Source: Endotrypanum monterogeii (lineage: Eukaryota; Euglenozoa; Kinetoplastea; Trypanosomatida; Trypanosomatidae). From it: DNA of 64,000 nt. Made by a program: the position numbers and the translations under genes. The notes beneath the pieces are model-generated. The model was not told the DNA's origin, did not search any database, and worked only from the letters and a program-made list of their open reading frames with translations. Where the stretch lies: the NCBI GenBank assembly GCA_000333855.2, contig CM007319.1, positions 324,604-388,603 of the forward strand. Direction: 5' to 3'. Shown here one piece after another: positions 5,281-64,000 of this stretch (position 1 is its first letter; every line of letters starts with the position of its first letter).

Positions 5281-5390
5281 NNNNNNNNNNNNNNNNNNNN
5301 NNNNNNNNNNNNNNNNNNNNNNNNNNNNNNNNNNNNNNNNNNNNNNNNNNNNNNNNNNNNNNNNNNNNNNNNNNNNNNNNNNNNNNNNNN
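5281..5390. other. Assembly gap (110 N)
   Basis: A run of 110 N. It is followed by about 20 consecutive C and a CA repeat, so the gap probably reflects failure to read through a poly-C/CA tract. The true length is unknown. Confidence 0.95.
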
Positions 5391-17094: not shown

Positions 17095-18651
17095 ATGTCC
17101 TCCTTGAACAACGCCAACCCGATGATAGCCGCCGCTGCTGATGCGACTAATTCCTCATTTGTTTTACCAGCGACATCACAAGGCTCCTCTGTGAACTTGA
17201 ACTTCGAAGGCTTCTCAGCGGATCTTTCCGAAACTCACTGCCGCGCAATGTTGGAGCAACTTGTTCGAGACGCAGTCAGTCATTCTGATAAACCACCCCT
17301 CCGCCACAGCAGCACAGTCCAGTCCTCTACCATGAACGAGGTACACACAAGTGCATCCTTGACAGAACAGCAGAATGATGTTTCTAGCTCCGGAAACAGT
17401 CGCAGTGACAGTCTCACGCACGCCAACTGGATCACCGCCACGTCATCAGCCGGTCAGCAGCTATGGCAGTATGGCGCCAGCGAACGCTCGCCAGGCTGCA
17501 CCACCATCGCATCGATCGGCTATCTAGAAACAGATGTGTCTCCGTCGTGGCAGTCGCTCTCAAATCAAGAATCTCAGTTCACCGCACCCGCCTCTCCTTC
17601 TGGCGTGGTCCCAGACAGCACAGCCCCAAAGACCGGTGAGGGTGATTCCAGCGGCTCCCACAAGAACACACCTGTAAGGTCGGCAACAACAACTGCCGAC
17701 TCCGTGCTGACCAGCAACGCGAGCTCACACTACAAGACAAAGAGGTGTCGTCATTTTGATCAGTCCGGTTGGTGCCCTTACCAGCACCGCTGTGTTTTTG
17801 CTCACGGTGACCGCGAGTTCGCTCTTAACACGGCACAAAAAGGCACTGTAAGCGGGGGGAAAGTCGATGACAGCAGCCCAACAGCCTCCCAGCTCGTGCG
17901 CGAGCACATTGAGCGGAATGTTCGGCAACTGGTCGAGGAGTATGAACAGGCTGTGGCGGAGGCAAGCGGCAAGGCTGCCGTGAAGGACAACAGCGCTGGT
18001 GACCCCCCCGCTCTCCACGGCCCCCGAGGCGCACAGAGAAGCACCACTACCGAGGCTCCAGCAGTGAGCATCGTGAGAAGTCTACCGCACACCCAGCCCC
18101 CTCCTCCTCTCTCGACCGCTGCCCCAAATCACCTCCCATCGAATATGCACCTCCTCACGGCTACCCCGCTGGCACATCCGGCCATGGTGACGATGAATGG
18201 CACATCCAACCCGATGGCGCAGTTTCAGGTCTCGCATCCTCAGAGCTCTCAGCAGTACCACACACACCGACGGTCATTTCCCATGCTGAATCATCACCCC
18301 CTTCTCATCGCCTCGATGAATGGACCCCCCACTGGATCAACGTTGTCCATGATGTCGCCAAACCAATCCTCAGCGCCTGTCTCGCAGCCCTTCAGCACCC
18401 CTCCTTCGTATCAGCAACAGCAGCAGCGGCCGATGCTGTTCACGATGCCGTCTGGTGCGGTTGGTGTGCTCCAGATGCATCCACACCAGCAACAACTCCG
18501 GCAGCAGCAGCAGATCTACTTGGTGGAAACACCCTACTACAATGTAATGGCCGCAAATGGCGGAAACACTGTGATGCCGGTGGCCCCTGCTGGGTACACA
18601 AGTGTTCCCGCTGGTTCCATCAACAATATGTTAACTACTCGCCTCGTCTGA
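17095..18651 (+). CDS. CCCH-type zinc-finger protein
   Basis: 518 residues from the ATG at 17095. A single CCCH finger, C218-x8-C227-x5-C233-x3-H237, lies in 'YKTKRCRHFDQSGWCPY' followed by 'CVFAHG'. The 'YKTK' lead-in is typical of RNA-binding TTP-like fingers. The N-terminal 200 residues are Ser/Thr-rich; the C-terminal half is rich in Pro, Gln, His and Met, with short poly-Gln runs. In trypanosomatids such proteins regulate mRNA stability or translation. A start at 16963 would add 44 hydrophobic residues encoded by T-rich and TA-repeat UTR sequence, so it is rejected. The chosen ATG is the last three bases of a TA repeat. A second CCCH gene with a very similar finger lies 8 kb downstream. 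I see no H-x-P-Y MKT1-binding motif here. The target RNA is unknown. Confidence 0.85.
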   Translation: MSSLNNANPMIAAAADATNSSFVLPATSQGSSVNLNFEGFSADLSETHCRAMLEQLVRDAVSHSDKPPLRHSSTVQSSTMNEVHTSASLTEQQNDVSSSGNSRSDSLTHANWITATSSAGQQLWQYGASERSPGCTTIASIGYLETDVSPSWQSLSNQESQFTAPASPSGVVPDSTAPKTGEGDSSGSHKNTPVRSATTTADSVLTSNASSHYKTKRCRHFDQSGWCPYQHRCVFAHGDREFALNTAQKGTVSGGKVDDSSPTASQLVREHIERNVRQLVEEYEQAVAEASGKAAVKDNSAGDPPALHGPRGAQRSTTTEAPAVSIVRSLPHTQPPPPLSTAAPNHLPSNMHLLTATPLAHPAMVTMNGTSNPMAQFQVSHPQSSQQYHTHRRSFPMLNHHPLLIASMNGPPTGSTLSMMSPNQSSAPVSQPFSTPPSYQQQQQRPMLFTMPSGAVGVLQMHPHQQQLRQQQQIYLVETPYYNVMAANGGNTVMPVAPAGYTSVPAGSINNMLTTRLV

Positions 18652-19523: not shown

Positions 19524-19553
19524 NNNNNNNNNNNNNNNNNNNNNNNNNNNNNN
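19524..19553. other. Assembly gap (30 N)
   Basis: A run of 30 N inside AT-rich repeat sequence, flanked by two copies of the same 106 bases. Confidence 0.95.
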
Positions 19554-26804: not shown

Positions 26805-26832
26805 GTGGGGAAAGACATCATTACCACTGAAA

Positions 26833-27732
26833 ATGACAAACCAGTCGCACGTAACGATGTCCAGGCGCAACGGCGCTTCAGGGGAGCAGCACAAGCGCAC
26901 CTCCCACGCCGCCGGCGACGAGGAAGAGAAACATATGTTTGCTGGTCGTTACAAGACAAAGATGTGCAAGAACTACATAGAGAAAGGTGAGTGCCCGTAC
27001 GATATGCGCTGCATGTTTGCCCATGGTGAAGAGGAACTGCGCACCATGGACGACAACGTGCGCGACGGCCTCACCACAGAGGAGGCGATTAAAAATTTTC
27101 AGCGCCATCAAAACCAAGCGAAGCGCCGGGCCGCCGGTGCGGCTGGGCGTGAGCACCACAACCGCAGCCAAACTGATACCGCACGCGCCGCGCACTACCG
27201 AAACGCGTCCGAAACCGAGAAGAGCACGAACAGCAGTGAAGTCTCTCGCAAGCACCACCACGTTAACAGCACCAGTTCGCGTATGCGCAACATGCAGGAG
27301 GCCGCGCCGATTCCCCCACGTCAGCGGCAGCTTCAGAGCGTGATGACGCCGTGCTACGCACACAACCCCTACACACTTGACCTCATCCCCAGCACATCAC
27401 GACTATTTCCACTGTACCACGAGTTGGTGGAGGAAGGTTGCTGGTACGAGGAGGAGCCTGTGCACGCACAAGAGGACTACTACTTCCCCTCTTCGGATAT
27501 GATGATTCCACTTGTGCCGAGCGTGTTGACGCAACAGTACTCCCAGTACCCACACCAGCGGTCCGGAAAGCAACTCGAGATGGTTGCCTCTACCAGCAGC
27601 TACAGTGGCGAGGAGGCCATGTACATCCACAGCGATTCCTCGCCTAACTCGGTGTACTGCCCCATGGTACGCTGCACGGCTGCTGACCTTCCCAGCAGCT
27701 CCGACATCCCGACAATGGTGATGGAGCCGTAA
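26833..27732 (+). CDS. CCCH zinc-finger protein with HNPY motif, probably ZC3H11-like
   Basis: 299 residues from the ATG at 26833; an alternative start is Met9 (MSRRNG). One CCCH finger near the N-terminus, C45-x8-C54-x5-C60-x3-H64, sits in 'YKTKMCKNYIEKGECPY' then 'CMFAHGEEEL'. Residues 177-180 are HNPY, fitting the H-(D/E/N/Q)-P-Y motif by which T. brucei ZC3H11 and some other regulators bind MKT1 (family knowledge). T. brucei ZC3H11, which stabilises chaperone mRNAs by binding AUU repeats, lies from memory next to the CK1 pair on chromosome 5. The motif and synteny together suggest an orthologue. Residues before 56 of the longer open frame come from pyrimidine-tract sequence, so the 26668 start is rejected. 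The finger closely resembles that of the upstream gene, suggesting old paralogy. Confidence 0.85.
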   Translation: MTNQSHVTMSRRNGASGEQHKRTSHAAGDEEEKHMFAGRYKTKMCKNYIEKGECPYDMRCMFAHGEEELRTMDDNVRDGLTTEEAIKNFQRHQNQAKRRAAGAAGREHHNRSQTDTARAAHYRNASETEKSTNSSEVSRKHHHVNSTSSRMRNMQEAAPIPPRQRQLQSVMTPCYAHNPYTLDLIPSTSRLFPLYHELVEEGCWYEEEPVHAQEDYYFPSSDMMIPLVPSVLTQQYSQYPHQRSGKQLEMVASTSSYSGEEAMYIHSDSSPNSVYCPMVRCTAADLPSSSDIPTMVMEP

Positions 27733-42526: not shown

Positions 42527-44214
42527 ATGAGCAAGCGAAACGAAAGCGCCGGGGACGATCCATTCTCCTCGCACCGCCGTCGTAGTCATCGGTCCGACCG
42601 GCGTCACACGGACGATACAGCCAACTCTGGTGATCGTCACCGTCACCGGCGTCACAACAGCACCAACTACTCCACTGATGATCTGCTCGATGATCACCAG
42701 CGCCGCCATCGCCACCGCAGTCCGCATCATCATCGTCACCACCGCCGGGGCAACGCGGAGGGGCGAAATGATGAACACGACTCCACGCGGGCGGATCGGA
42801 CCTCGAGTTCTCACCACCGCTCTCGACGAGAGCGCAGCGCCAGGGATGATGAGTACGCTGGCATTGATGATGGTCGTCTCTCGCGGAGGCGGCGGCAGCG
42901 CGACGGGAAGCAATATCGTGAGGACAGTCGTAGTGAAGAGGACATGGACGCTCAGAGTAGTCGTCAAGAAAAACACAAGCGGCTGCGCGACAGTGCTGCG
43001 GCAGACGAAGATGACGGCCAGCAAGATCGAAAGCGCCGTCCTGTTGACGGTCCACGGGGCGACGACAACGTGAGCCGCAGGGTGGACAACAGTGTGACTA
43101 GTACAAGTAACGCGAGGAGCAGCACCGTAGACTGGAGCTCACGTCGAGGCCGTCAGCACGTGCCTGGACTCGCATGCGACGTTGATCAGCAAAAGCGCTT
43201 TCTGGGCTTTCTAGACCGCCGTGATGCGTCCGGCGGTGGGGCAGCAGCGATGCAGTTCACCATCGGCAAAGACGGCCTCGTGCAAATGCCTCCACCACCC
43301 ACGCTTGTGCACCGCCAGAGTCGGCACCGACCCGGCGCCACGGATACCAACAATAGAAATGACACTAGCCTCCGGCAGCAACACCGTCGACGCCCCACGC
43401 CGAGCGACACAGTCCCCTCCGCCATCACTCATGACGAGGACGGTGACGACAGAAGCTCGTCGCATCGCACGAGTCTCTCTACAACGACCCCTCGACTGCG
43501 CAAATGGGTATCTTACCAGATATCATACCACCGTCCAACCTCTACCGTGTCGCGCTCTATGGGGTAGATCTTTCACTGACGACTTCTCATCTGATCTCGA
43601 TGGTAACGCAGCTGCTGGGCAGTAGTGCGAAACCGTGGCGCGTGCGCCGACCAGCGCGTGAGATGCTGCACGCTGCAGTAAGCTACAACCGCGCTGCGCG
43701 ACAACAGCCGCAGTCCCAATTGCCGTCATCACACAAGGGCGCCATTATAAGCGCGGCATCGTCGTCTGAGGTGCTCGTTGGCCAACCGTCAAGTTCCAGC
43801 AACCCCCCTCACACCGTCTCAGCCTCAGCGATCGGTGTACTGGTAGACGAATCCCCTGTCATTAGCCACAGAGACAGATGTGTGCCTCCTGCCACCGACA
43901 GCAGTGACGTCGCCTACGGGGTACTCGGCATTGGGACAGAGAACACCAGCGGCATTTTGCGAAGCGATCTGGAAGACCAACGGAATCGTGAAACATCTCA
44001 GGAAAACAACGAGGGTGTGTTGCCTGATGCATCATCACTTCATCAGCCACCACAGCGTTCCCCGCCCGCCTGTTACCTCCCAGGCTTGCACGACGTCAAT
44101 GGCCCAGGTGGGATGGTGGTGCTGGAATTCACAGAGCAGGCTCATGCACTTCGTACCACAGAGATGCTTAACGGTGCATATCTGAATGGTCGGCGCGTGG
44201 CTGCATCCATGTAG
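42527..44214 (+). CDS. RS/RD-rich protein with RRM-like regions, split by one frameshift
   Basis: Two open frames cover one gene. The first (from ATG 42527) encodes an Arg/His/Asp/Ser-rich N-terminal half like the RS domain of splicing factors and then 'GKDGLVQMPPPPTLVHRQ'. At about 43502-43505 the coding frame moves by one base; the second frame gives 'MGILPDIIPPSNLYRVALYGV', an RRM-like strand, and ends with 'GPGGMVVLEFTEQAHALRTT' and 'LNGAYLNGRRVAAS', which resembles the last strand, helix and strand of an RRM or U2AF homology motif. Adding one A to the AAA run at 43502-43504 would join the frames into about 562 codons. The first frame alone would stop at 43565-43567 after 18 or so unrelated residues. 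A role in RNA processing is inferred from composition and the C-terminal motif. The frameshift may be a sequencing error, a real mutation, or less likely programmed. Confidence 0.65.
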
Positions 44215-47498: not shown

Positions 47499-48618
47499 AA
47501 CAAGTTAGCGAAACAAGCGAAAGAACTGCGTGCCGCTCTGCTCTCGTTGTGAGTTGCCGTGCACCGCTAACACCTCCCCCCCCCTTCGGTGGACATCTAA
47601 ATAGAGATGCACATGCTCGGTGTGCACGCATGAAACAACAGGGTTCACGTTTCTTTTTTTCTGTGTGTACTCCGCTCAGCTTTTTTTTTTTTATTGGGAG
47701 ACAACAGCATGACATCCCACCTCTGTGTGTGTGTGTGTGTGTGTGTGTGCGCAGGGCCATGCTTGTATGCGGGCCTCGTTACTACATTTGATCTCCACAC
47801 CACTCCTCGTCTTCGTCCTCCTCATAGATATATCTGTACAGCGACGCTGTTTTTATGCAGCCATTGGTCTGCTTTCTTGGCTAGTGTAAGTATGTGTGTG
47901 AAGTGTTTTTATCTCCGCTAATCGTGTCTTGTCTTCTTTTTCTCCCTCCGCCCTTGAAGTGTTATTCAGAAACCTTTGGGTAGAGGCACAACAACGACAT
48001 CCAAAAAAAAAAATGATTTCTTTGATTTTCTACCAGGAGTGTGTTTCTCGTCTTTTCGCCGCGCGTTCTAAATAGAGATGCAGCTTCAGACCTCGGTACT
48101 CGGCTGCAGGGATTTTCATGAGAATGCTCGGGTGAGCAGAGCTCCCTGAGTCCACAAGAGCGGCGATAATAGCTCTCGCTTTTTTTTTTTTTACTGGAAT
48201 GCACGTAACTGCAGTTGCACACATCTCCCACTCATACCCAATGTAGTGTAGACCGTGTATTTCTCATGAGCTTGGTTCCTTTCTATGGGTGTATACATGT
48301 ATATTCCCCTTCTTTTGCCCTCCCCCAAATCTCTGCTCTCCCCTCTCCCAAAGTGTGGACAAACCATCTTGTCATCTTCCACTGAACACTTTTTCTTGGT
48401 GCGTGCGTGTCGACACAAGAAAAAAAAAGAAAAGGAAAATAGTTTTTTTTTTTTGTAACGGCACGGTGGTGTGTGTGTGTGTGTCTGTCTGTCTGTCTGG
48501 AGAAGGGAGGGGACTCGTCCTCAGCATCCCAACCGCCGTATTCCCAGTTGTACACGTCGCTTACAGGCGCCGCAACCGTCTGGAGCCAAGAAGAAGAAGA
48601 AAGGTGTATAGGGTGGAA
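47499..48618. other. Intergenic region
   Basis: No gene seen. It has poly-T runs, a TG tract at about 47724-47750 and a T-rich stretch at 48441-48455. Any of several AGs between about 48501 and 48600 could be the KRI1 splice acceptor. Confidence 0.5.
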
Positions 48619-51600
48619 ATGCCGCCCGCGACCTCGACATCCCCCGCTTCGGCGAAGGTGCCCCCCCGTGTTGCGTTTGATTCGGATGACTCTTCTTCAA
48701 GTGATAGCGAACGGATCCAATCCGGAGGGGACTCGCTCTCGCGAGAGATGGCAGCGGCGGCAGAACGTCAGCGTCGCAAGAACCCGCACGCGGAGAGCGG
48801 TCGCGCTAGGCTGCCTCGCCCCCACCCGCTGGCCCCATCGGGTCGGACCGCCCCCACAGCGTCATCGACCGCGGTGCCGTACAAAGCGAAAAAGGTCGAT
48901 CTCTTCTGCAGTGACTCCTCCACCTCAGACGAAGAAGACGCAGAAAATCTTCCCACGTCAGCGGGCGAAACTTTACGCTCAAACTCCTCCACATCCCCGC
49001 TAGCCCCCACCGCCCCAGGACGCGCGCGCTGTACGGCCGGTGGACCGGCCAGGAAAGCAGAGCATGTGCAGGGTCTTTGCTTGAGGGTCTCCGATGCCGC
49101 TGCGGCAGACGGCAAGAAACGTCAAGAAACCCAAGAATCAGAGGAAGATAATGGCAGCAGCGATGAGAACAGTGGCCTGCACATCAACAAAGCGTACGCA
49201 ACCCGTTACGAGGAACAGAAGCGCAAGCAGGAGCTCCACACGCTGGCTGAAAAATACAAGGGGAAGCTCGGTAAGATCGCCGCTTTCGACTTCGATAATG
49301 ACGAGGATGGGACGGAGAACAGTTCTGATGATGAGGAAGCTGAAGAAGACGACGACGCAGTGCTTCTCACCCGTGAGAACAACATCAGCTTTGCCAAAGC
49401 CCTGCTTGCCGTGCGCAAGGCTACGGTGCCGCTCCGCGTCGGCCGTCGTGACACGAAGAATAACGGAGTGGGGGTAGATGACTCTGCCGCAGACCATAAG
49501 GACTCTCCGACCTCTCACCCCGACACGGACGCCACTGTGGAGGTTCTATTGCCCAAAGAGGAACTTCTCAAGGAGCGCTTCTTCCCTCCTGCTGAGGAAC
49601 AAATTCGCGTGAACACTGATGTCTTCGAGCGACGCATGAAGCAGAAGCAGAAGAAGGAGGCTAAAAAGAAAAGATTCACGCTTTCCGACGAGTACAAGCG
49701 CTCCCTCAAAGCCACCGCCGAGTCAGAGGATGCTGTCGTGGACGACTCCAACGAAGCAGGCGAGCGCGACGGACTGCGGAAACTCAGACCGCAGAGCGAA
49801 GAGGAAGCTAAACTCCGTGCCGCTTTCTTGCGCAACGTGGAAGACAGCGCCAGCACCTTTGAAGTGGTCCGGGGCGCCACCGCAGCACACGCGTCAGCGC
49901 CAACAGCAGAATCCACCAGCGACGAGGACAGCACTGACGAAAGCGTGCAGTCCCACATGGCCGATGACGAAAAACAACTGCTGGAAACAGCGTTTGCGCT
50001 GGGCATCTCCACTCCTGCAGCGAAGAAAAAGAAGAAGCAAAGCACCACCGACGGTGCCACCGAAGACGACAATGAGGTGTTTCTGCGCGACTTCTTCATC
50101 CAGGAGCTCTGGCGTCCTGGTGTGGCGCGCAAAAAGAAGAAGGCACAGAAAGGCAGTGCTGTTGCCGACGAGGGAGGACAAGAAGAGGAGGGGGAGGAAG
50201 GAGAAGAAGGGCCCGCTGGCTCCTATTACGACCGCCTCGCCCAACTCGCGCGTGAGGAAGAAGATGATACCTTCTTCAGTCACGCCGAGGTATGGGAGCG
50301 GGAATACCAAGACAAGAAGTACCGCCACCAAGAAGCAGAGGAAGAGACAACCAATGGCGGCGTGTCGGCAGCGCACGTGCAAACGTTTCCTCGCCCAATT
50401 GGTGATGCTGTCACAGGGCTCCTCCGCAAGTCAGATACCGCACGCAAGGACGCACGTCAGCGACGCCGCGAGCGCGCAGAGGCAGCACGTACGCAGCAGA
50501 TTGAGGAGCTGAAGAGACTGAAGCACCTAAAACGAAAAGAGATTGAAGACCAGCGTGCCCTTATCGCCTCCGTTGCCGGTCTGAAAACAATAACCGCCGA
50601 CGACTTTGGAGGAGATGCGCAAGAAGAAGCGGAGCTGGCAAAGCTCAAGGCGGTATGGTCAGACCAAGACCTCAGCGCCCCGTTCGATCCGGAGGAGTTT
50701 GACCGAAAGATGGCGCAGCTCTTTAACGATGACTACTACAACGAAAAAAACGTCGATGAGGATGAGATAGCGTACTTCGACGAAGAGCTCGACAAGGAAC
50801 ACAATGAAGACGAAATGGGTACAGCAGAGGATATCCGCTGTGGCGAGGCACCCGCGCTGTTCGCAGCGAGCTCGTTAGAAGAGGCGCTATCAATGGCACC
50901 GGCGGCCGCGGTGGGGGAGAACAAAAACAAAGAGAGCAGTGCTGAAGTTTTCTTCAACGACGACTTCGGGCCTTCGCAGGTGGCTGGTACCAGTGACGCG
51001 GTCTCGCTCCTCTACCCATCAGAAGCACTAAAGCAACTGGAAAAAGAGCGGCAGCAGCTAAATAACTTAATCGCCTCCTCCTCAGGAAAGCGCGAAACCA
51101 ACGCCGAGCTGCTGGAGCGTCTGCAAGCATCTCTGAAACAGAAGGAGGAAGAATACTACGAACTGCACCGTAACGCTGGCGCCGCGTCATCAGACGGCGC
51201 AGGCGTCAGCGGCGGCTTCCGGTACCGTGAGGTGCCCCCCGAAGACTTCACATTATCCATCGAGGAAATCTTGGCACTTGATGATCGACAACTGAACATG
51301 ATTGCCCCAATGAACTGCTATGCGGCCTACCTGGACAAGGAAAGCAACGAGCGTGATCGGCATCGCATTGAACGCCGCAGGCAGAAAGGCTTCCGCCAGG
51401 TGGACTCGGATCGCACCTCGCGACGCTACGGTAATGTTAAAAGCACTGCCGTGTTAAACCCGGAGCAGATAAACGACGTAGAAGGCGAAGCGATCGCCGA
51501 GAGCCTATCGAAGCGTCTGCGCGAGGAAGGCGAAGACCCCGATGCACCGCTGGAGACGCCCCAGTACGCGAGAAGCCGAGGACGTGGCAGAGGTGGCGCA

Positions 51601-51762
51601 CCGGCTGGTTGGTCACGTGACGCGTCGTCCTCTCGAGGCAAATGGCCGCGTACGGAAGGTCGAGGCCGAGGCGGTCGAGGAAGCAGTAGGGCACCTGGTG
51701 GCGCCAGCAGTTTCTCCTCCTCTTCACGTGGTGGGCAGAGAGGGCGAGGTCGTGGCAGGTGA
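48619..51762 (+). CDS. KRI1: KRI1-like ribosome biogenesis protein
   Basis: 1047 residues from the ATG at 48619. The frame continues upstream to an ATG at 48289, but that part reads poly-T and TG repeats and is excluded. Family features in order: acidic Ser/Asp/Glu-rich N-terminus; 'LHINKAYATRYEEQKRKQEL' near 188; 'FLRDFFIQELW' near 487; a long basic helical stretch with 'EELKRLKHLKRKEI' near 631-645; 'FDPEEFDRKMAQLFNDDYY' near 690; and the C-terminal block 'FRYREVPPEDFTLSIEEILA' near 867, which marks KRI1. A 65-residue Arg/Gly-rich tail follows, common in nucleolar RNA-binding proteins. KRI1 is a nucleolar factor needed for 40S subunit assembly (established in yeast). The protein is longer than yeast Kri1 because of extra acidic low-complexity segments. 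Confidence 0.9.
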   Translation: MPPATSTSPASAKVPPRVAFDSDDSSSSDSERIQSGGDSLSREMAAAAERQRRKNPHAESGRARLPRPHPLAPSGRTAPTASSTAVPYKAKKVDLFCSDSSTSDEEDAENLPTSAGETLRSNSSTSPLAPTAPGRARCTAGGPARKAEHVQGLCLRVSDAAAADGKKRQETQESEEDNGSSDENSGLHINKAYATRYEEQKRKQELHTLAEKYKGKLGKIAAFDFDNDEDGTENSSDDEEAEEDDDAVLLTRENNISFAKALLAVRKATVPLRVGRRDTKNNGVGVDDSAADHKDSPTSHPDTDATVEVLLPKEELLKERFFPPAEEQIRVNTDVFERRMKQKQKKEAKKKRFTLSDEYKRSLKATAESEDAVVDDSNEAGERDGLRKLRPQSEEEAKLRAAFLRNVEDSASTFEVVRGATAAHASAPTAESTSDEDSTDESVQSHMADDEKQLLETAFALGISTPAAKKKKKQSTTDGATEDDNEVFLRDFFIQELWRPGVARKKKKAQKGSAVADEGGQEEEGEEGEEGPAGSYYDRLAQLAREEEDDTFFSHAEVWEREYQDKKYRHQEAEEETTNGGVSAAHVQTFPRPIGDAVTGLLRKSDTARKDARQRRRERAEAARTQQIEELKRLKHLKRKEIEDQRALIASVAGLKTITADDFGGDAQEEAELAKLKAVWSDQDLSAPFDPEEFDRKMAQLFNDDYYNEKNVDEDEIAYFDEELDKEHNEDEMGTAEDIRCGEAPALFAASSLEEALSMAPAAAVGENKNKESSAEVFFNDDFGPSQVAGTSDAVSLLYPSEALKQLEKERQQLNNLIASSSGKRETNAELLERLQASLKQKEEEYYELHRNAGAASSDGAGVSGGFRYREVPPEDFTLSIEEILALDDRQLNMIAPMNCYAAYLDKESNERDRHRIERRRQKGFRQVDSDRTSRRYGNVKSTAVLNPEQINDVEGEAIAESLSKRLREEGEDPDAPLETPQYARSRGRGRGGAPAGWSRDASSSRGKWPRTEGRGRGGRGSSRAPGGASSFSSSSRGGQRGRGRGR

Positions 51763-56764: not shown

Positions 56765-57892
56765 ATGGCTCCTTCCTTCGCCTCCTTGACAGGGATGCGT
56801 GGCATCAGTCACGTGCGCACTGTAGTGATGCTGCTGGCAAGTCTAGTTCTTGCTATCCTCCTGCTTGGAGGTGGAAACAGTGGCAACGACCAGGGCAGCT
56901 TCCTCAGCGCCACTGTCTATCCGCTGTGGCATGGTGTACCATTTGCCGTTGGTGCGATGGCAACGCCAAGCGAGGGAAACGTTGCGGAGCCCGCCGAGCC
57001 CCGCACGCTGGAAGGGGACGAGGCGTTCGTGGAACGTCTGCACTTGGACTTCGACGACACGGCAGAGGCAGAGGAAGCGGCGGCCATCGCTGCCGAGTCG
57101 CCGACCGCCCACCTTGACGGGATGAGCGTTGAGGAACTAAAAGCGCTGCTCTCTGAAAAGAAAAAGGGATGGGTGAACCTCAACAATTTTAAGGATCGCG
57201 CTGCTCTCATTGAGGCCATCCACCGTCTGGAGCAGGAGGAAGCTGCTCGGGTAGCGTTCCGTGCCGAAGTCGCGCTCGCTGCCGACTGGTATGCGGAAAA
57301 AAAGGCGCAACTCAATGTTGCATATCGCGGCTCTCAAGGCAACAGCGAAATTCTCCGAGAGAGTACTGAACCAGCAGACGATGGTGACACAGAAGAAGGC
57401 AGGCTATTGCACAAGCTCGTCGTCGTCTACAACGAAGCCCAAGGATACAAGTCAAACTTTGAGAAGCTTCGCAAGGAACTGCACGAATCGCCAACGGTGA
57501 ATCTGCCGAATTTCGCTGATTTCGAGATCATAGGAACAGAATACCCCATGAGCCCCAAACGGGTGCTGATCAGCAAGGTGCTACAGGCTGTGTTTGTCCT
57601 CGTGCTAGGGTTCAGCCTTTTGGCAGATCAGTTGTATTTTGTTCCAGAGCCAGTTCGCAATTTTCTGCGCGGGCGTCGCAGCCTCATGATCAGCGCCAGC
57701 CTCCTGCTCAACGTGCTTAGTCGTTCCGCGTTGCAGAACAGTGCATTTGAGATATTTTTGGATGATGAGCTAATCTACTCCACCCTAGGCGCGGGTGGAC
57801 GGTTGCCGACGGCAGAGCTTCTGAGCAACCTGATCTTGAAGCGAACCCTATTAAAGGACTACTACGCAGCCACCATAGCAAGTGCGGTTTGA
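56765..57892 (+). CDS. SelT-like protein lacking the Cys/Sec redox pair
   Basis: 375 residues. An N-terminal hydrophobic anchor or signal peptide (about 17-36) is followed by an acidic linker. A short helical SAP-like segment spans about 119-156 ('MSVEELKALLSEKKKGWVNL', then 'AALIEAIHRLE'). The C-terminal half is a SelT-type Rdx domain: strand 'HKLVVVYNEAQGYKSNF' (217-231), hydrophobic hairpin at about 270-295 and 306-320, and a final 'FEIFLDDELIYSTLGAGGRLP' (328-348). In SelT the position of N223-x-x-Q226 before Gly-Tyr is Cys-x-x-Sec (or Cys). Here both redox residues are missing, so thioredoxin-like activity is not expected. It is the tandem paralogue of the gene at 59015. ER membrane location is inferred from the SelT family. 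The motif codons are sense, so no recoding is involved. Confidence 0.8.
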   Translation: MAPSFASLTGMRGISHVRTVVMLLASLVLAILLLGGGNSGNDQGSFLSATVYPLWHGVPFAVGAMATPSEGNVAEPAEPRTLEGDEAFVERLHLDFDDTAEAEEAAAIAAESPTAHLDGMSVEELKALLSEKKKGWVNLNNFKDRAALIEAIHRLEQEEAARVAFRAEVALAADWYAEKKAQLNVAYRGSQGNSEILRESTEPADDGDTEEGRLLHKLVVVYNEAQGYKSNFEKLRKELHESPTVNLPNFADFEIIGTEYPMSPKRVLISKVLQAVFVLVLGFSLLADQLYFVPEPVRNFLRGRRSLMISASLLLNVLSRSALQNSAFEIFLDDELIYSTLGAGGRLPTAELLSNLILKRTLLKDYYAATIASAV

Positions 57893-59014: not shown

Positions 59015-60087
59015 ATGCTTTTCTCTTTCCTCGGAAGGCGACCGTGGCTTCGAGCCACGGCGCCGCTCATTGTAACATTGCTGCTGCTCTATGTCGTTGT
59101 CATTGCGTCCACAGGGAGCTCGGCGCATCCACAGGGGCCCTCTGAAGGGAATAAACAGGACCCGTACGCTTACCTCGACATGCTTGATGAGGTGGACCTG
59201 CAGCAGATGCTGCACGAAAAGACACATGGAAGAGTGCATGCCAACGCCTTTCGTAGCAAGAAAGAACTTGTCGCAGAAGTGCGCAAGATCGAAGAGCGTG
59301 AGGATGCGGAAGCCGAGTTCAACGAGCGCGTGAAGGCAGCGATGAGGCAGAAGAAAGCCGGTGCAGCAGCGGCTGCGTCGGAGAAGTCTGGTAGTGGAGA
59401 GTTGCCACCCCACTCGCAGCATCGCCAAGCGCGGTGGGGGACAACCATATCAAGGATACTAACAAGCAACATAAAAAAGGAAAAGCAGTACATTTGGCGG
59501 GTGAAAATAGCGAACCAACAACCCTGGGGAAAAGACGAGGTCACAGTGAACATGGTGGGCATGCCGAGAACAGATACACAGATGTGAAGAAAGCGTCCAG
59601 TGGACGCCGACCCTCGGATGTGCATCAATTGGAAGTGCTGTACTGCACTGGATGAGGATACGCGAAGTATTTTGAAGATATAAAGCAGCAGCTGCAACGA
59701 ACGCTGCCCAACGCGGAAGATGTGGCCATTGTGGGTGGTACTTACCCCACCCCCCCTGCCCGCGCGCTTGTCGCAAAAATGTGCTCAACGGCCTTTCTGG
59801 CCTCTCTTGGAATCGCTCTAGGGGGACAACATCTCGCTTTTCTGCCCGCTGCTGTTGTGAATTTCGTCGCCCAGCAGCGGGGGATGTTCATCGGCGCCGG
59901 CTTCATGCTCAACATGATTGGTGGCGCTCTCGCTCAGACCGGTGCCTTTGAGGTGACTCTGGATGGCGAACTCATTTTCTCCAAGCTAGAAACTGGATCT
60001 GTGCCGGCCCCTGCTGAACTGCGTCGTATTATCCTGCAGCGAACGCTGCTAGACAAGTACAGCAGCGAGAGTACAACAAAATCGTAG
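59015..60087 (+). CDS. SelT: Selenoprotein T-like protein, TGA read as selenocysteine; one frameshift upstream
   Basis: The start (MLFSFLGRRPWLR) gives an N-terminal hydrophobic segment (about 15-31) and a SAP-like helical segment ('LDEVDLQQMLHEKTHGRVHA', then 'ELVAEVRKIE'). This frame ends at TGA 59585-59587. The next frame, open from 59395, carries a polar linker and then reads 'LEVLYCTG', TGA (59653-59655), 'GYAKYFEDIKQQL', followed without interruption to TAG at 60085-60087. Cys-x-x-TGA-Gly-Tyr is exactly the SelT redox motif, and the end 'TGAFEVTLDGELIFSKLETG' is the SelT C-terminal signature. The TGA is therefore very probably Sec. Joining the first two frames needs one base between 59395 and 59584; the five-G run at 59436-59440 is the likeliest place. 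Kinetoplastids are known to have SelT, SelK and SelTryp. Function: ER membrane thiol redox. A SECIS element is expected in the 3' UTR but was not confirmed. Confidence 0.85.
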
Positions 60088-60838
60088 AGAGCACTCAAAA
60101 AGGTCAACGAGAACAGAAACACAGTCTAGGAAGCGAGGCTGCGCCTCCACGCACAGACAAGCGTCTACTAGCTCGTTTGTGTATCAGAGGGAAGGGGGCA
60201 TAAGTGAAGGTGTAGGGCGAGGAAGTGATGACACATAGAGATCGTTTCTTTCTGTGTAGCAATGTCCCTCGCTTCCTCCCTTTTCCCCCTCTCACGGCCT
60301 CTTTCTGTGATGGATACTGTTGATCCTGTTCCAATGTGTAGGACACTCTCTACTCGCTGGCGTAGCGTAGGAGGGCCCTCCTCGTGTTGCGAGGACAAGT
60401 GCCGCTCCTGGATGCTGCTTTTATCTTCAATCTACTTCGCTTGAGTGAAAAAAAAAAGGAAAACAAAGGACAGTAACACGTGTTCTGGGGAAAAGCACCA
60501 AACACGCGCGCACATCATGCACACCGAGACTTCGTGCTTTCTTCTTTTTGTTGTCGAGCTCACATGAAGGTATATCGACGATGAGCTTTAAAAAAAAAGA
60601 AAACGTGTACATAAATGAAAGACAAAAAAAGGAGGAAGGCAGCGAATCCGTTCCCGGACGTGTCTACCCATAAATTCACATCACAGAAGGTGCACTTGTA
60701 AGAACGGAGAAGAGAGAGGTGTGCGAAAGCGAATCTCAGATGCTACTCCGCCACGTCCCTCCCTCCGAGAAGCCCTATCTCCTCTCCTATTCATATGTCT
60801 CGTTATTTCGGGAGAACCTCTCAAAGCACTTCTCTCGG

Positions 60839-60876
<38 letters not shown>

Positions 60877-63253
60877 TTCGTCTGTCATATGTAGTAGGAT
60901 CTGCAGCTTGGTTCCGGTTATGAGCTTAGACGTTTGCAATATTTTGTTAAGGTGTATCCGAATTGCAGGTCAGAATGACCTTATGGCGTGTGTATGTGTG
61001 CAAAGACGCTTTTCCCACCCCTCGATGTTTCTCATCTCCCTCTGAAGGTCCATCCTGTTTGAAGACAGGTGCATGTGAACAAGATGTGGACACGGGAATG
61101 GGAGAACAACAACAAAGGAAAAAAAGAGGGAGACACAGCAAAACGTACAAAAGATCAAACCCTTGCAACGTCATGTTTTTTTTTCCAAAAAAAAAATTTG
61201 TTATTTGTATGACGGTGCCCCTGGTAAAACTCAACATGTGTGTCAAACAGACGGCGATGGACAAGTGTCACTGTGCCACACCTCCCCCTCCCTTCACCAA
61301 CGCAACCACCACCACAAGATGAACTCCTCGCTCCCGTATACAGAGTTGAGGGAGGAAGAATGGAGGGGTTGCGAAGCAAGGGAAGTCGGAGTACTTCCTA
61401 GTGGGGGTATAAAAAAAAAAAAAAGGAAGGGCACAGCGCCTATTGTCCTCGCCTCTACGACACACGAGTCCGGGACACTTGACTTTCTCTCTCTACTCTC
61501 TAGCTCGGAAAACAGCCAAGTCGCCTAGCAGTTCTATACTGCGAGAACAGACCTATTTGTTTGATAGGCAACGCACCTGGACTCTCTCTCCTCGAGGTTC
61601 TTTTTTTTTTTTTCGTACACGGGTAGAGCCTGCTGTTTCAAAGACACACGCCCCATCACACCACAACACACACCCCTCGTCAAGATCCAATCAGCCTGTG
61701 CGTGTATGTGGGAGATGGGAAAGGGGTTGTGTATGCAGGTTTTTTGCCCTATTTTCCTCTTCTTTCGCCTCGGGCACTCTTCCCTTTCTTCTCTGCATTT
61801 GCAGAAGCTCACAAGTTGGGAAACGGCAATGGACTGCCGGTGTGCGTCCCCAAATATGTGCCTCCTCGTCTTTCCATGAGCATGATGTGTGCACATGTCT
61901 ATGATATTTGCGCTCGCCAGAAGCAACTCGATGGCTCACCCAGGGACACATATACCTCATGTTCTTGTTGCTCTAGTACCTTTCTGTGACAGTCATTCCC
62001 TCGTCAATTTTTCATTCACTACTCCACCCCCACACTGCCATATTTCCTTTTTTATTTTAGTATGCGTCTTTTCGATTAACTTTTTTTTGTCGTTTCTTTG
62101 CCTGTTTATTTCCCTCAAATATGTCTACATCAAATTTCCTCAACGGGTGAAGTCCCCCCTCCCCCTCCCCTCGTCAAAAAAAATTTTTTTTTTCTCTCCG
62201 GTGTCTTTTTTTTTTTTTGGTGTGTGAAGTGAGAAGAGGAGGAGGAGGAATAAATCTATTATGAAATATATATTGGTTCATGAGTGTCCCCATCTCCAGT
62301 CAAGGCGGCATTGGTGAGTAGCGTGTGTGATGGTGTGTTTATGCATTGTTGCTTCAGGATGCTCGTTTTGTTACTGTTGTTGTTGTTTGCATCCTGGCCG
62401 CCTCTCCGTGCACCAGTGTGTAGATATGTCCCAAGAATGCGTGCAGGAGTTCACACTAGCAAGATGCTCGAGCAAGGGAAAAACAAGTATCATACGACCT
62501 ACGCGAGTAGGACCTAGAAAAATAAAAATGTGGAACCACTGACGGCAAGACAAACAAGTGATTCATAGAACGACCATCATTCAAGAAACAACTCCTGCTC
62601 CTCTGCCCTGCCTCTACCTGTTCCCTATGCTATCCAATAATTCAGAGTACCGATATATAATTAAAAAAAGAAAAAAGAGGGAGGAGGAGGAGGAGTGAGG
62701 GAGTGCACCAATAGGTCTCAGTGGATGAGGATGAGGATGTGTGTGTGTGTGTGCCTGTGTGCATGCACACACACAGCTGAGGAAAATTCATGAATGATCT
62801 CACTTCTCCCGTCATCGATATTGGTACTGTCCGCCTTCTTCCATGCGTGCGAAATACCCGGCAATAAAAAGTGGAGCATCATCAGACCTCCGGCCTGCAC
62901 ATTACCTGTAGCGCAGCACAACCGTATATTTGCAGCTGTATCTTTATTCCACTGCCACCATCATATCCGTCTACCAATGCGCGCAACAAGCAACACATTA
63001 GCTCATGAACATTTCCTTTGGTATTGCAGGTGCACCATACACTGATCCCAGATACATCTTCAGAAACCTATCGCTCTCCTCTACAAATTAGATCCAAACA
63101 AAAACTACTTGATACATCTTTCGTGGTCCAGACAACTACTCTTATTATCGCGGCAAACGGTATACTTGATTTGCATCTGCCAACATTTACACTCCACGGC
63201 ACCTGCCCCCACGCAACTCATTTCCCACCACCCACCCACCCACCCACCCCACT
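60088..63253. other. 3.2 kb spacer, SelT 3' UTR and STT3 5' region
   Basis: No gene is supported. The first few hundred bases should be the SelT 3' UTR and contain a two-part stem-loop (60215-60274). Further on there are a TG tract at 60842-60873, poly-A and poly-T runs, and a (CCCA)n tract at about 63226-63250 next to the STT3 start. The AG at 63028-63029 in TATTGCAG is a weak splice-acceptor candidate for STT3. Confidence 0.5.
60215..60274 (+). other. Two-helix stem-loop in the SelT 3' UTR
   Basis: The lower helix pairs GCGAGG (60217-60222) with CCTCGC (60267-60272), extendable by two G-U pairs. An internal loop with GTGATG on the 5' side leads to an upper helix: ACACATAGAGA (60231-60241) pairs with TCTTTCTGTGT (60247-60257) with one mismatch and a five-base loop TCGTT. 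Position and layout are SECIS-like, but the 3' side lacks the required GA and the apical loop lacks AA or CC, so it does not meet the SECIS consensus. Confidence 0.4.
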
Positions 63254-64000
63254 ATGTCGAGTCTCAATCCGCCCCAAAAAGGGAGCGAAGAATGTCCTGC
63301 ACCAGACCCCGACAGTGACAAAGCAAAACATCACAATGGCGCAGCCACCCGGCGCACCTCTGCCGATCACCCCTCCTCCTCTCCCGGTGGCGCGACGTAT
63401 TTCCTGAACATCCGCGCCGTGCCTTACTCGCTAGTGTCCTACGCCTACAATGGATTTATGGTCATAGTCGTCCTCTACGCAATCCGCATGGCGTATGTGA
63501 TTCGCTTTGCCTCCGTTCACATGTACGGGTACTTGATCCACGAGTTCGACCCGTGGTTCAACTACCGCGCTGCCGAGTACATGTCGACGCACGGCTGGTC
63601 CGCCTTCTTTAGCTGGTTCGACTACATGAGTTGGTACCCGCTGGGCCGCCCCGTCGGCAGCACCACATACCCAGGTCTTCAGATCACCGCGGTGGCCATC
63701 CACCGCGCATTGGCCGCCGTCGGCATGCCGATGTCCCTCAATAACGTGTGCGTGCTCATGCCGGCGTGGTTTGGCTCTATAGCCACGGCGATACTCGCCC
63801 TCTGTACGTACGAAATCAATGGGTCACTGGCGGCCACAGCGGTTGCAGCGTTCTCGTTTGCCATCGTTCCAGCCCACCTGATGCGGTCCATGGCCGGTGA
63901 ATTCGATAACGAGTGTATCGCCATCGCAGCCATGCTGCTCGCCTTCTCCCTCTGGGTTGGCTCGCTGCGTGCGCGGGCCTTGTGGCCCGTCGGCATCCTC
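63254..64000 (+). CDS. STT3: Oligosaccharyltransferase subunit STT3, 5' part
   Basis: 249 codons from the ATG at 63254 to the window end, with no stop; the rest of the gene lies outside. A polar cytosolic N-terminus of about 50 residues precedes 'FLNIRAVPYSL' and the first membrane helix (about 62-82). 'HEFDPWFNYRAAEYM' in the first lumenal loop holds the conserved catalytic and metal-binding DPWFNYR element; 'WYPLGRPVGSTTYPGL' and 'MAGEFDNECIAI', the second acidic motif, follow, with further membrane helices. STT3 is the catalytic subunit that transfers glycans to Asn-X-Ser/Thr in the ER; in kinetoplastids it works as a single subunit, often encoded by tandem copies. The ATG at 63336 is in a different frame, ending at 63407, and is not the start. 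63254 is the only upstream in-frame ATG seen after the CCCA tract. Confidence 0.9.
   Translation, partial: MSSLNPPQKGSEECPAPDPDSDKAKHHNGAATRRTSADHPSSSPGGATYFLNIRAVPYSLVSYAYNGFMVIVVLYAIRMAYVIRFASVHMYGYLIHEFDPWFNYRAAEYMSTHGWSAFFSWFDYMSWYPLGRPVGSTTYPGLQITAVAIHRALAAVGMPMSLNNVCVLMPAWFGSIATAILALCTYEINGSLAATAVAAFSFAIVPAHLMRSMAGEFDNECIAIAAMLLAFSLWVGSLRARALWPVGIL

What the first reader, a model, noticed from the sequence alone, without database searches (positions are those of the whole stretch)
59626..59670. In-frame TGA at the SelT active site: a selenocysteine codon that gene callers will break
The sequence directly shows Tyr-Cys-Thr-Gly-TGA-Gly-Tyr followed by 143 more open codons that end in the SelT signature. 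The Cys-x-x-Sec-Gly-Tyr motif is the family's redox site, and kinetoplastids are known to decode UGA as Sec. An ORF-based annotation gives two or three short fragments here and misses the protein.
Basis: partly seen in the sequence, partly recalled or inferred. Interest (0 to 1): 0.85.

Follow-up and report, generated by a model that had tools for sequence, protein, structure and literature searches.

The report
Selenoprotein T gene and redox-dead neighbour
A stop-like codon in this relative of Leishmania very probably encodes selenocysteine in the known protein SelT, and the gene just upstream is a conserved sister copy that has lost the whole reactive site, which may be the more interesting find.

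Summary
In detail: at 59641-59661 the sequence reads Tyr-Cys-Thr-Gly-TGA-Gly-Tyr, followed by 143 open codons. Homology runs through the TGA (Pfam Rdx, E 3.6e-17). It is the Sec codon of SelT, a known kinetoplastid selenoprotein. Records of relatives break there: 8 of 8 N-terminal pieces end exactly at YCTG, and 0 of 18 records carry the intact site. The genome has tRNA-Sec(UCA), SepSecS, selenophosphate synthetase and a UGA-bearing SelK. eEFSec was not identified. SECIS is unconfirmed (one weak candidate, 61319).

(1) The N-terminal coding part (ATG 59015) lies in another frame; the change is near 59425-59445, so SelT is interrupted in this assembly, by error or by mutation. (2) The gene just upstream (56765-57892) is a second SelT-type protein without the redox site (YCTGUGY becomes YNEAQGY). 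All 9 orthologues found also lack both redox residues. SelT and paralogue form separate clades (100/100), and locus tags put them side by side in P. hertigi and L. martiniquensis.

SelT is an ordinary new member of its family. The conserved redox-dead copy deserves a test as a prozyme-like partner.

The parts
59653..59655 (+). In-frame TGA, the Sec codon of SelT (motif YCTG-U-GY at 59641-59661)
   Evidence: relatives end at the same residue
59395..60087 (+). SelT, frame 1: end of the N-terminal extension, redox site, Rdx (thioredoxin-like) domain with inserted hydrophobic stretch, stop TAG
   Evidence: Pfam Rdx, TIGR02174, alignment with 9 relatives, hydropathy
59015..59587 (+). SelT N-terminal part, frame 2 ORF (hydrophobic leader at residues 14-32, conserved motif); coding similarity ends near 59437
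59425..59445 (+). Interval in which the coding frame changes from 2 to 1 (break in this assembly; relatives uninterrupted)
   Evidence: separate alignments of the two pieces; codon model ends frame 2 at 59431 and takes up frame 1 only from 59664
61301..61374 (+). Weak SECIS candidate: AUGA at 61319, CC in the loop, GA, strong basal helix
   Evidence: no Rfam match
56765..57892 (+). Redox-dead SelT paralogue (375 aa), YNEAQGY at the redox site, no cysteine

Best explanation
The TGA at 59653 is the selenocysteine codon of SelT, a thioredoxin-like redox protein of the ER. Sec-tRNA(Sec), brought by the eukaryotic Sec machinery and directed by a SECIS in the 3' UTR, inserts Sec there; Cys and Sec then form the Cys-x-x-Sec redox pair. 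Shown here: the codon, homology on both sides of it, relatives' gene models broken at the same residue, and tRNA-Sec, SepSecS, selenophosphate synthetase and SelK in the same genome. Inferred: decoding, SECIS, ER site, redox activity. In this assembly the gene is also interrupted upstream by a frame change, so whether this copy is made as one protein is open. Beside it stands a full-length paralogue that kept the fold and lost the redox residues.
For: Rdx match across the TGA; CXXU_selWTH match; C-terminal part 64-81% identical to 9 relatives; 8 of 8 N-terminal relatives end at YCTG and 9 of 9 C-terminal pieces begin at the ninth residue after Sec; one Rdx match over the cut-off in the genome, with 1 TGA inside; tRNA-Sec with anticodon TCA; SepSecS; selenophosphate synthetase, aligned over 398 of 398 residues with L. 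major 5L16; SelK ending GGCASG-U-GS. Literature: trypanosomatid SelT with Sec (PMC7595633 and PMC12153298, passages).
Against: No Rfam SECIS match in the window, in 60070-62200 or in the genome; the only candidate has an expectation of about 0.06 by chance. eEFSec not identified. Frame change upstream and no in-frame ATG. The orthologues' codon at the Sec position could not be read, as only proteins were available.
Confidence: 0.93

Rival explanations
1. This copy is a recent pseudogene: the upstream frame change is a real mutation, and no full SelT is made in this lineage.
For: Frame change near 59425-59445 against 8 of 8 uninterrupted relatives; no second copy found; the codon model flagged few same-strand switches elsewhere (1 in 19 sampled loci, one of which is all N, with 80.6 kb called coding by my sum), so the assembly is not grossly error-prone.
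Against: The 143 codons after the Sec site and the rest of frame 1 show no further stop, and the residues that are invariant in the 9 relatives are kept. Another possible break lies in the window at 43450, so isolated errors may occur.
Confidence: 0.3
2. The upstream frame change is an assembly error and the gene is intact in the organism.
For: Conserved coding sequence on both sides without other damage; the neighbouring paralogue is intact; the genome keeps the Sec machinery and SelK.
Against: No reads could be examined; frame switches flagged elsewhere are few.
Confidence: 0.65
3. Programmed ribosomal frameshifting joins the two frames.
For: Both sides look coding: frame 2 up to 59431 and frame 1 from 59664 in the codon model, with similarity to relatives on both sides.
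Against: Relatives have one continuous frame there (8 of 8). By eye I saw no in-frame X-XXY-YYZ heptamer (motif recalled, not searched by a tool).
Confidence: 0.03
4. TGA is an ordinary stop; the N-terminal part is one gene and the downstream frame is another.
For: Public records of relatives are annotated this way.
Against: The Rdx domain and its redox motif straddle the TGA, and the genome has tRNA-Sec(UCA) and SelK with UGA.
Confidence: 0.03

Closest known systems
Trypanosomatid selenoprotein T (SELENOT/SelT; Pfam PF10262 Rdx, NCBIfam TIGR02174)
   Same: Cys-x-x-Sec motif, Rdx domain, N-terminal extension shared with Porcisia and Leishmania records
   Different: Interrupted by a frame change in this assembly; SECIS not confirmed
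Trypanosomatid prozymes: AdoMetDC prozyme and the dead subunit of deoxyhypusine synthase (PMC5201418, PMC6221367, PMC3663545; starts of abstracts in the listings)
   Same: A catalytically dead paralogue conserved alongside a living enzyme in trypanosomatids
   Different: Other enzymes; no evidence here that the SelT paralogue binds or activates SelT
SelW/Rdx thioredoxin-like proteins (PDB 2fa8, 2oka, 2npb, 2ljk)
   Different: The paralogue has an inserted hydrophobic helical part and no redox Cys or Sec

Membership tests
Selenoprotein T (59015-60087) | Rdx / CXXU_selWTH domain | tested here: met
   62.8 bits against cut-off 22.6; 66.1 bits against cut-off 34.2
Selenoprotein T (59015-60087) | Cys-x-x-Sec with Sec encoded by in-frame TGA | tested here: met
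   TGC ACT GGA TGA at 59644-59655, homology on both sides
Selenoprotein T (59015-60087) | SECIS element in the 3' UTR | tested here: inconclusive
   No Rfam match; one home-made candidate, chance expectation about 0.06
Selenoprotein T (59015-60087) | Sec machinery in the genome | tested here: inconclusive
   tRNA-Sec, SepSecS and selenophosphate synthetase met; eEFSec not identified, its two models rang in no control
Selenoprotein T (59015-60087) | One continuous coding frame from an ATG | tested here: not met
   Frame change near 59425-59445 in this assembly; 8 of 8 N-terminal relatives are continuous there. Taken as damage or error in a member, not as a mark of another family
Selenoprotein T (59015-60087) | ER location and redox activity | not testable with these tools
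   Hydrophobic leader seen; the rest needs experiment
Prozyme-like dead paralogue (56765-57892) | Paralogue of a living enzyme in the same genome | tested here: met
   38% identity over 152 aa to SelT; Rdx 22.9 bits, cut-off 22.6; but CXXU_selWTH 26.9 bits is under its cut-off of 34.2
Prozyme-like dead paralogue (56765-57892) | Catalytic residues lost, and lost in orthologues | tested here: met
   Y[NS][EQ]A[QSND]GY in 10 of 10 rows; no cysteine from the motif on in 9 of 10
Prozyme-like dead paralogue (56765-57892) | Binds and activates the living enzyme | not testable with these tools
   Needs co-purification and an assay

The most novel reading that the evidence does not exclude
Leishmania and its close relatives keep a tandem SelT prozyme: a full-length SelT copy that lost both redox residues before Porcisia and Leishmania parted, stayed beside SelT, kept the fold and the N-terminal domain, and acts as a stabilising, regulating or substrate-binding partner of the selenoenzyme in the ER.
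Probability: 0.2. Interest if true: 0.65.

Novelty: new member of a known kind. Interest (0 to 1): 0.38.

Why it matters
The Sec codon is a documented trap: of the 18 relatives found, none of the records shows the intact SelT site, and one L. donovani gene model skips it altogether, so studies built on these models miss the active site. If the redox-dead neighbour is a partner of SelT, it would give a handle on what SelT does in parasites in which its knock-down has little effect (T. brucei; PMC7595633, passages), and would extend the trypanosomatid use of dead paralogues to a selenoprotein.

Tried and rejected
SECIS. Rfam at gathering score on the window, at E up to 10 on 60070-62200 and on the SelK locus, and RF00031 on the whole genome gave no SECIS match. 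Earlier hairpin descriptors gave unconvincing sites. The later ones leave one candidate at 61319. It scores -26.5 kcal, where 10 sites in 504,000 background strand-bases (N stretches included) score -26 or better. It scores -29.0, where 8 AUGA sites in 446,372 background strand-bases score -26.5 or better. The SelK 3' region (2,931 bases) has only a -20.2 site, a score reached by chance about 0.3 times in such a length. The unconstrained fold of the SelT candidate has z -2.78 (2 of 200 shuffles fold as well) and does not show the SECIS apical part. Local fold z-scores gave a stronger hairpin at 62293; I saw no AUGA core in it and did not pursue it.

eEFSec. PF21208 and PF21131 gave nothing, but rang in no control either. 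TIGR00475 gave 19 matches, none over the cut-off. The eleven ORFs that I read (L008 to L015, L017, L023, L024) look by eye like organellar EF-Tu, eRF3, IF2, Hbs1, eIF2-gamma, EF-G and other GTPases, none recognisable as eEFSec (names are my reading, not a tool's). L018 to L022 were fetched and not read.

A second SelK-family place (C7, 28.9 bits, cut-off 23.3) was printed in translation but not studied.

Structure. The SelT model was too poor (mean pLDDT 44.7) and was not searched. For the paralogue, Foldseek gave no match under E 0.001; its best E was 0.017, a DsbA, and SelW-type chains had E 0.07-0.26.

Species. PMC8004069 (passages) gives 30.4, 29.5 and 29.1 Mb for E. monterogeii, P. deanei and P. 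hertigi; none fits 30.70 Mb closely, so the species was left open.

Not done: SelTryp was not looked for (no query at hand). Orthologue DNA could not be read, so selection and SECIS covariation were not tested. T. cruzi and T. brucei SelT were not compared.

Full report
WHAT IS THERE. The window lies at G000:C35:324604-388603 of a 30.7 Mb, 44-contig genome. The nearest named relative of both genes studied here is Porcisia hertigi. It is unlikely to be P. hertigi itself, as SelT's C-terminal part is 81% and the paralogue 61% identical. The setting is Leishmania-like: the selenophosphate synthetase aligns over 398 of 398 residues with the L. major structure 5L16. At 59641-59661 the plus strand reads TAC TGC ACT GGA TGA GGA TAC.

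IT IS SELT. With TGA as a residue, 59593-60084 matches Pfam Rdx with E 3.6e-17 (62.8 bits, cut-off 22.6), aligned from residue 13 to 147, the TGA being residue 21. NCBIfam CXXU_selWTH gives E 2.6e-18. A search of 5.8 billion proteins with the frame-1 piece found 10 relatives. Nine are C-terminal pieces of 135-141 aa that begin with Met at the ninth residue after the Sec position; this genome has Ile there. A search with the N-terminal ORF found 9. Eight end exactly at YCTG; the ninth, P0010, was in the first list too. So 0 of the 18 distinct records carry the intact site. P0010, an L. donovani 'Rdx family protein' of 282 aa, equals P0014 for its first 154 residues and P0004 for its last 102, and lacks YCTG-Sec: a gene model that leaves the active site out. 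At least four of the 18 records already bear the name Selenoprotein T (P0001, P0005, P0007, P0014).

THE MACHINERY. The genome has a tRNA-Sec with anticodon TCA (76.3 bits, cut-off 47). The tRNA-Sec model also rang in all 14 control genomes, over its cut-off in 5, so the anticodon call matters. It also has SepSecS (174 and 120 bits), selenophosphate synthetase (192.7 bits, cut-off 125) and SelK ending GGCASG-UGA-GS-stop. eEFSec was not identified: two eukaryotic models found nothing here and rang in no control, and none of the 19 matches of the selB model passes its cut-off, the best being an ORF that reads like an organellar EF-Tu. Published work states that T. brucei, T. cruzi and L. major keep this machinery with SelK, SelT and SelTryp (PMC7595633, passages), and that SelT with in-frame UGA is found in Blastocrithidia (PMC12153298, passages). 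The first reports on Leishmania selenoproteins and SECIS (Cassago 2006, Lobanov 2006) I know only from the reference list and from recall; the second is not held.

SECIS. Not confirmed. No Rfam match. A home-made descriptor finds one fair site, at 61319, 1.2 kb after the stop: AUGA, CC in the loop, GA, and a strong basal helix. Other sequence of this genome would give a site as good about 0.06 times in such a length. The SelK 3' region has only a weaker site. This is a lead, no more.

THE FRAME CHANGE. Frame 1, which carries the Sec codon, has no ATG between the TAG at 59392 and the TGA. The N-terminal coding part starts at ATG 59015 in frame 2. Compared apart, the frame-2 piece matches P. hertigi JKF63_01105 with 58% identity over 163 columns, and the frame-1 piece matches its later part up to the final YCTG (39% over 89 columns). 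The alignment puts the change near 59425-59445. A codon-usage model trained on this genome ends frame 2 at 59431 and takes up frame 1 only from 59664. The 8 N-terminal relatives are uninterrupted there. No second copy was found. In 19 sampled loci (one all N, others partly N) the model called 80.6 kb coding (my sum) and flagged 1 same-strand frame switch. In the window it flagged 2: 51572 is false, as the ORF 48289-51762 runs through it, and 43450 may be real; SelT's own change is not among the flagged ones. So such breaks seem uncommon, but the model's sensitivity is unknown. Error and recent mutation both stay open. I name no change that would join the frames.

HOW IT MAY WORK. SelT: Sec insertion at 59653, then Cys-Sec redox chemistry in the ER, as in its family (inferred). 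The neighbour cannot do that chemistry but is kept. Trypanosomatids have two published cases of catalytically dead paralogues that activate the living enzyme, AdoMetDC prozyme and deoxyhypusine synthase (PMC5201418, PMC6221367, PMC3663545; starts of abstracts in the listings). A SelT prozyme is thus a fair guess, as is a non-redox binding protein. Nothing here shows contact between the two.

NOVELTY. The Sec codon and SelT are known. My searches showed no report of the redox-dead paralogue: 'selenoprotein T' with 'paralog' and 'trypanosomatid' (3 papers), with 'Rdx family' and 'Leishmania', two of three terms (10 of 37 listed), with 'SelT-like', 'Leishmania' and 'pseudoenzyme', two of four (8 of 57 listed), SelT loss terms, four of six (8 of 153 listed), and 'selenoprotein T' with 'pseudoenzyme' (0 papers). 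These cover open-licence papers only, and except for passages of PMC7595633 I saw listings. Public databases already hold the paralogue as a hypothetical, transmembrane or Rdx family protein.

Noticed in passing
56765-57892: Second SelT-type gene directly upstream of SelT with both redox residues lost; orthologues in Porcisia and Leishmania have lost them too.
   Followed up: yes
   Followed up: partly
P0010 (L. donovani record, 282 aa): Gene model that joins the start of SelT to its last 102 residues and leaves out the redox site.
   Followed up: yes
42527-44214: Two overlapping ORFs in different frames; the codon model switches frame at 43450: possibly another broken gene.
   Followed up: no
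63254-64000: Next gene downstream of SelT is an STT3-type oligosaccharyltransferase (Pfam STT3, E 1.5e-33), running off the window.
   Followed up: no
48289-51762: KRI1-like protein (Pfam Kri1 and Kri1_C, about 2e-17).
   Followed up: no
9579-39164: Long stretch in which the codon model calls little coding sequence (only 17097-18624 and 26829-27729), unusual for a gene-dense trypanosomatid.
   Followed up: no
62293-62382: Long two-part hairpin (z -3.5 against shuffles) between SelT and STT3; no AUGA core seen, function unknown.
   Followed up: no
5281-5390 and 19524-19553: Runs of N in the window.
   Followed up: no
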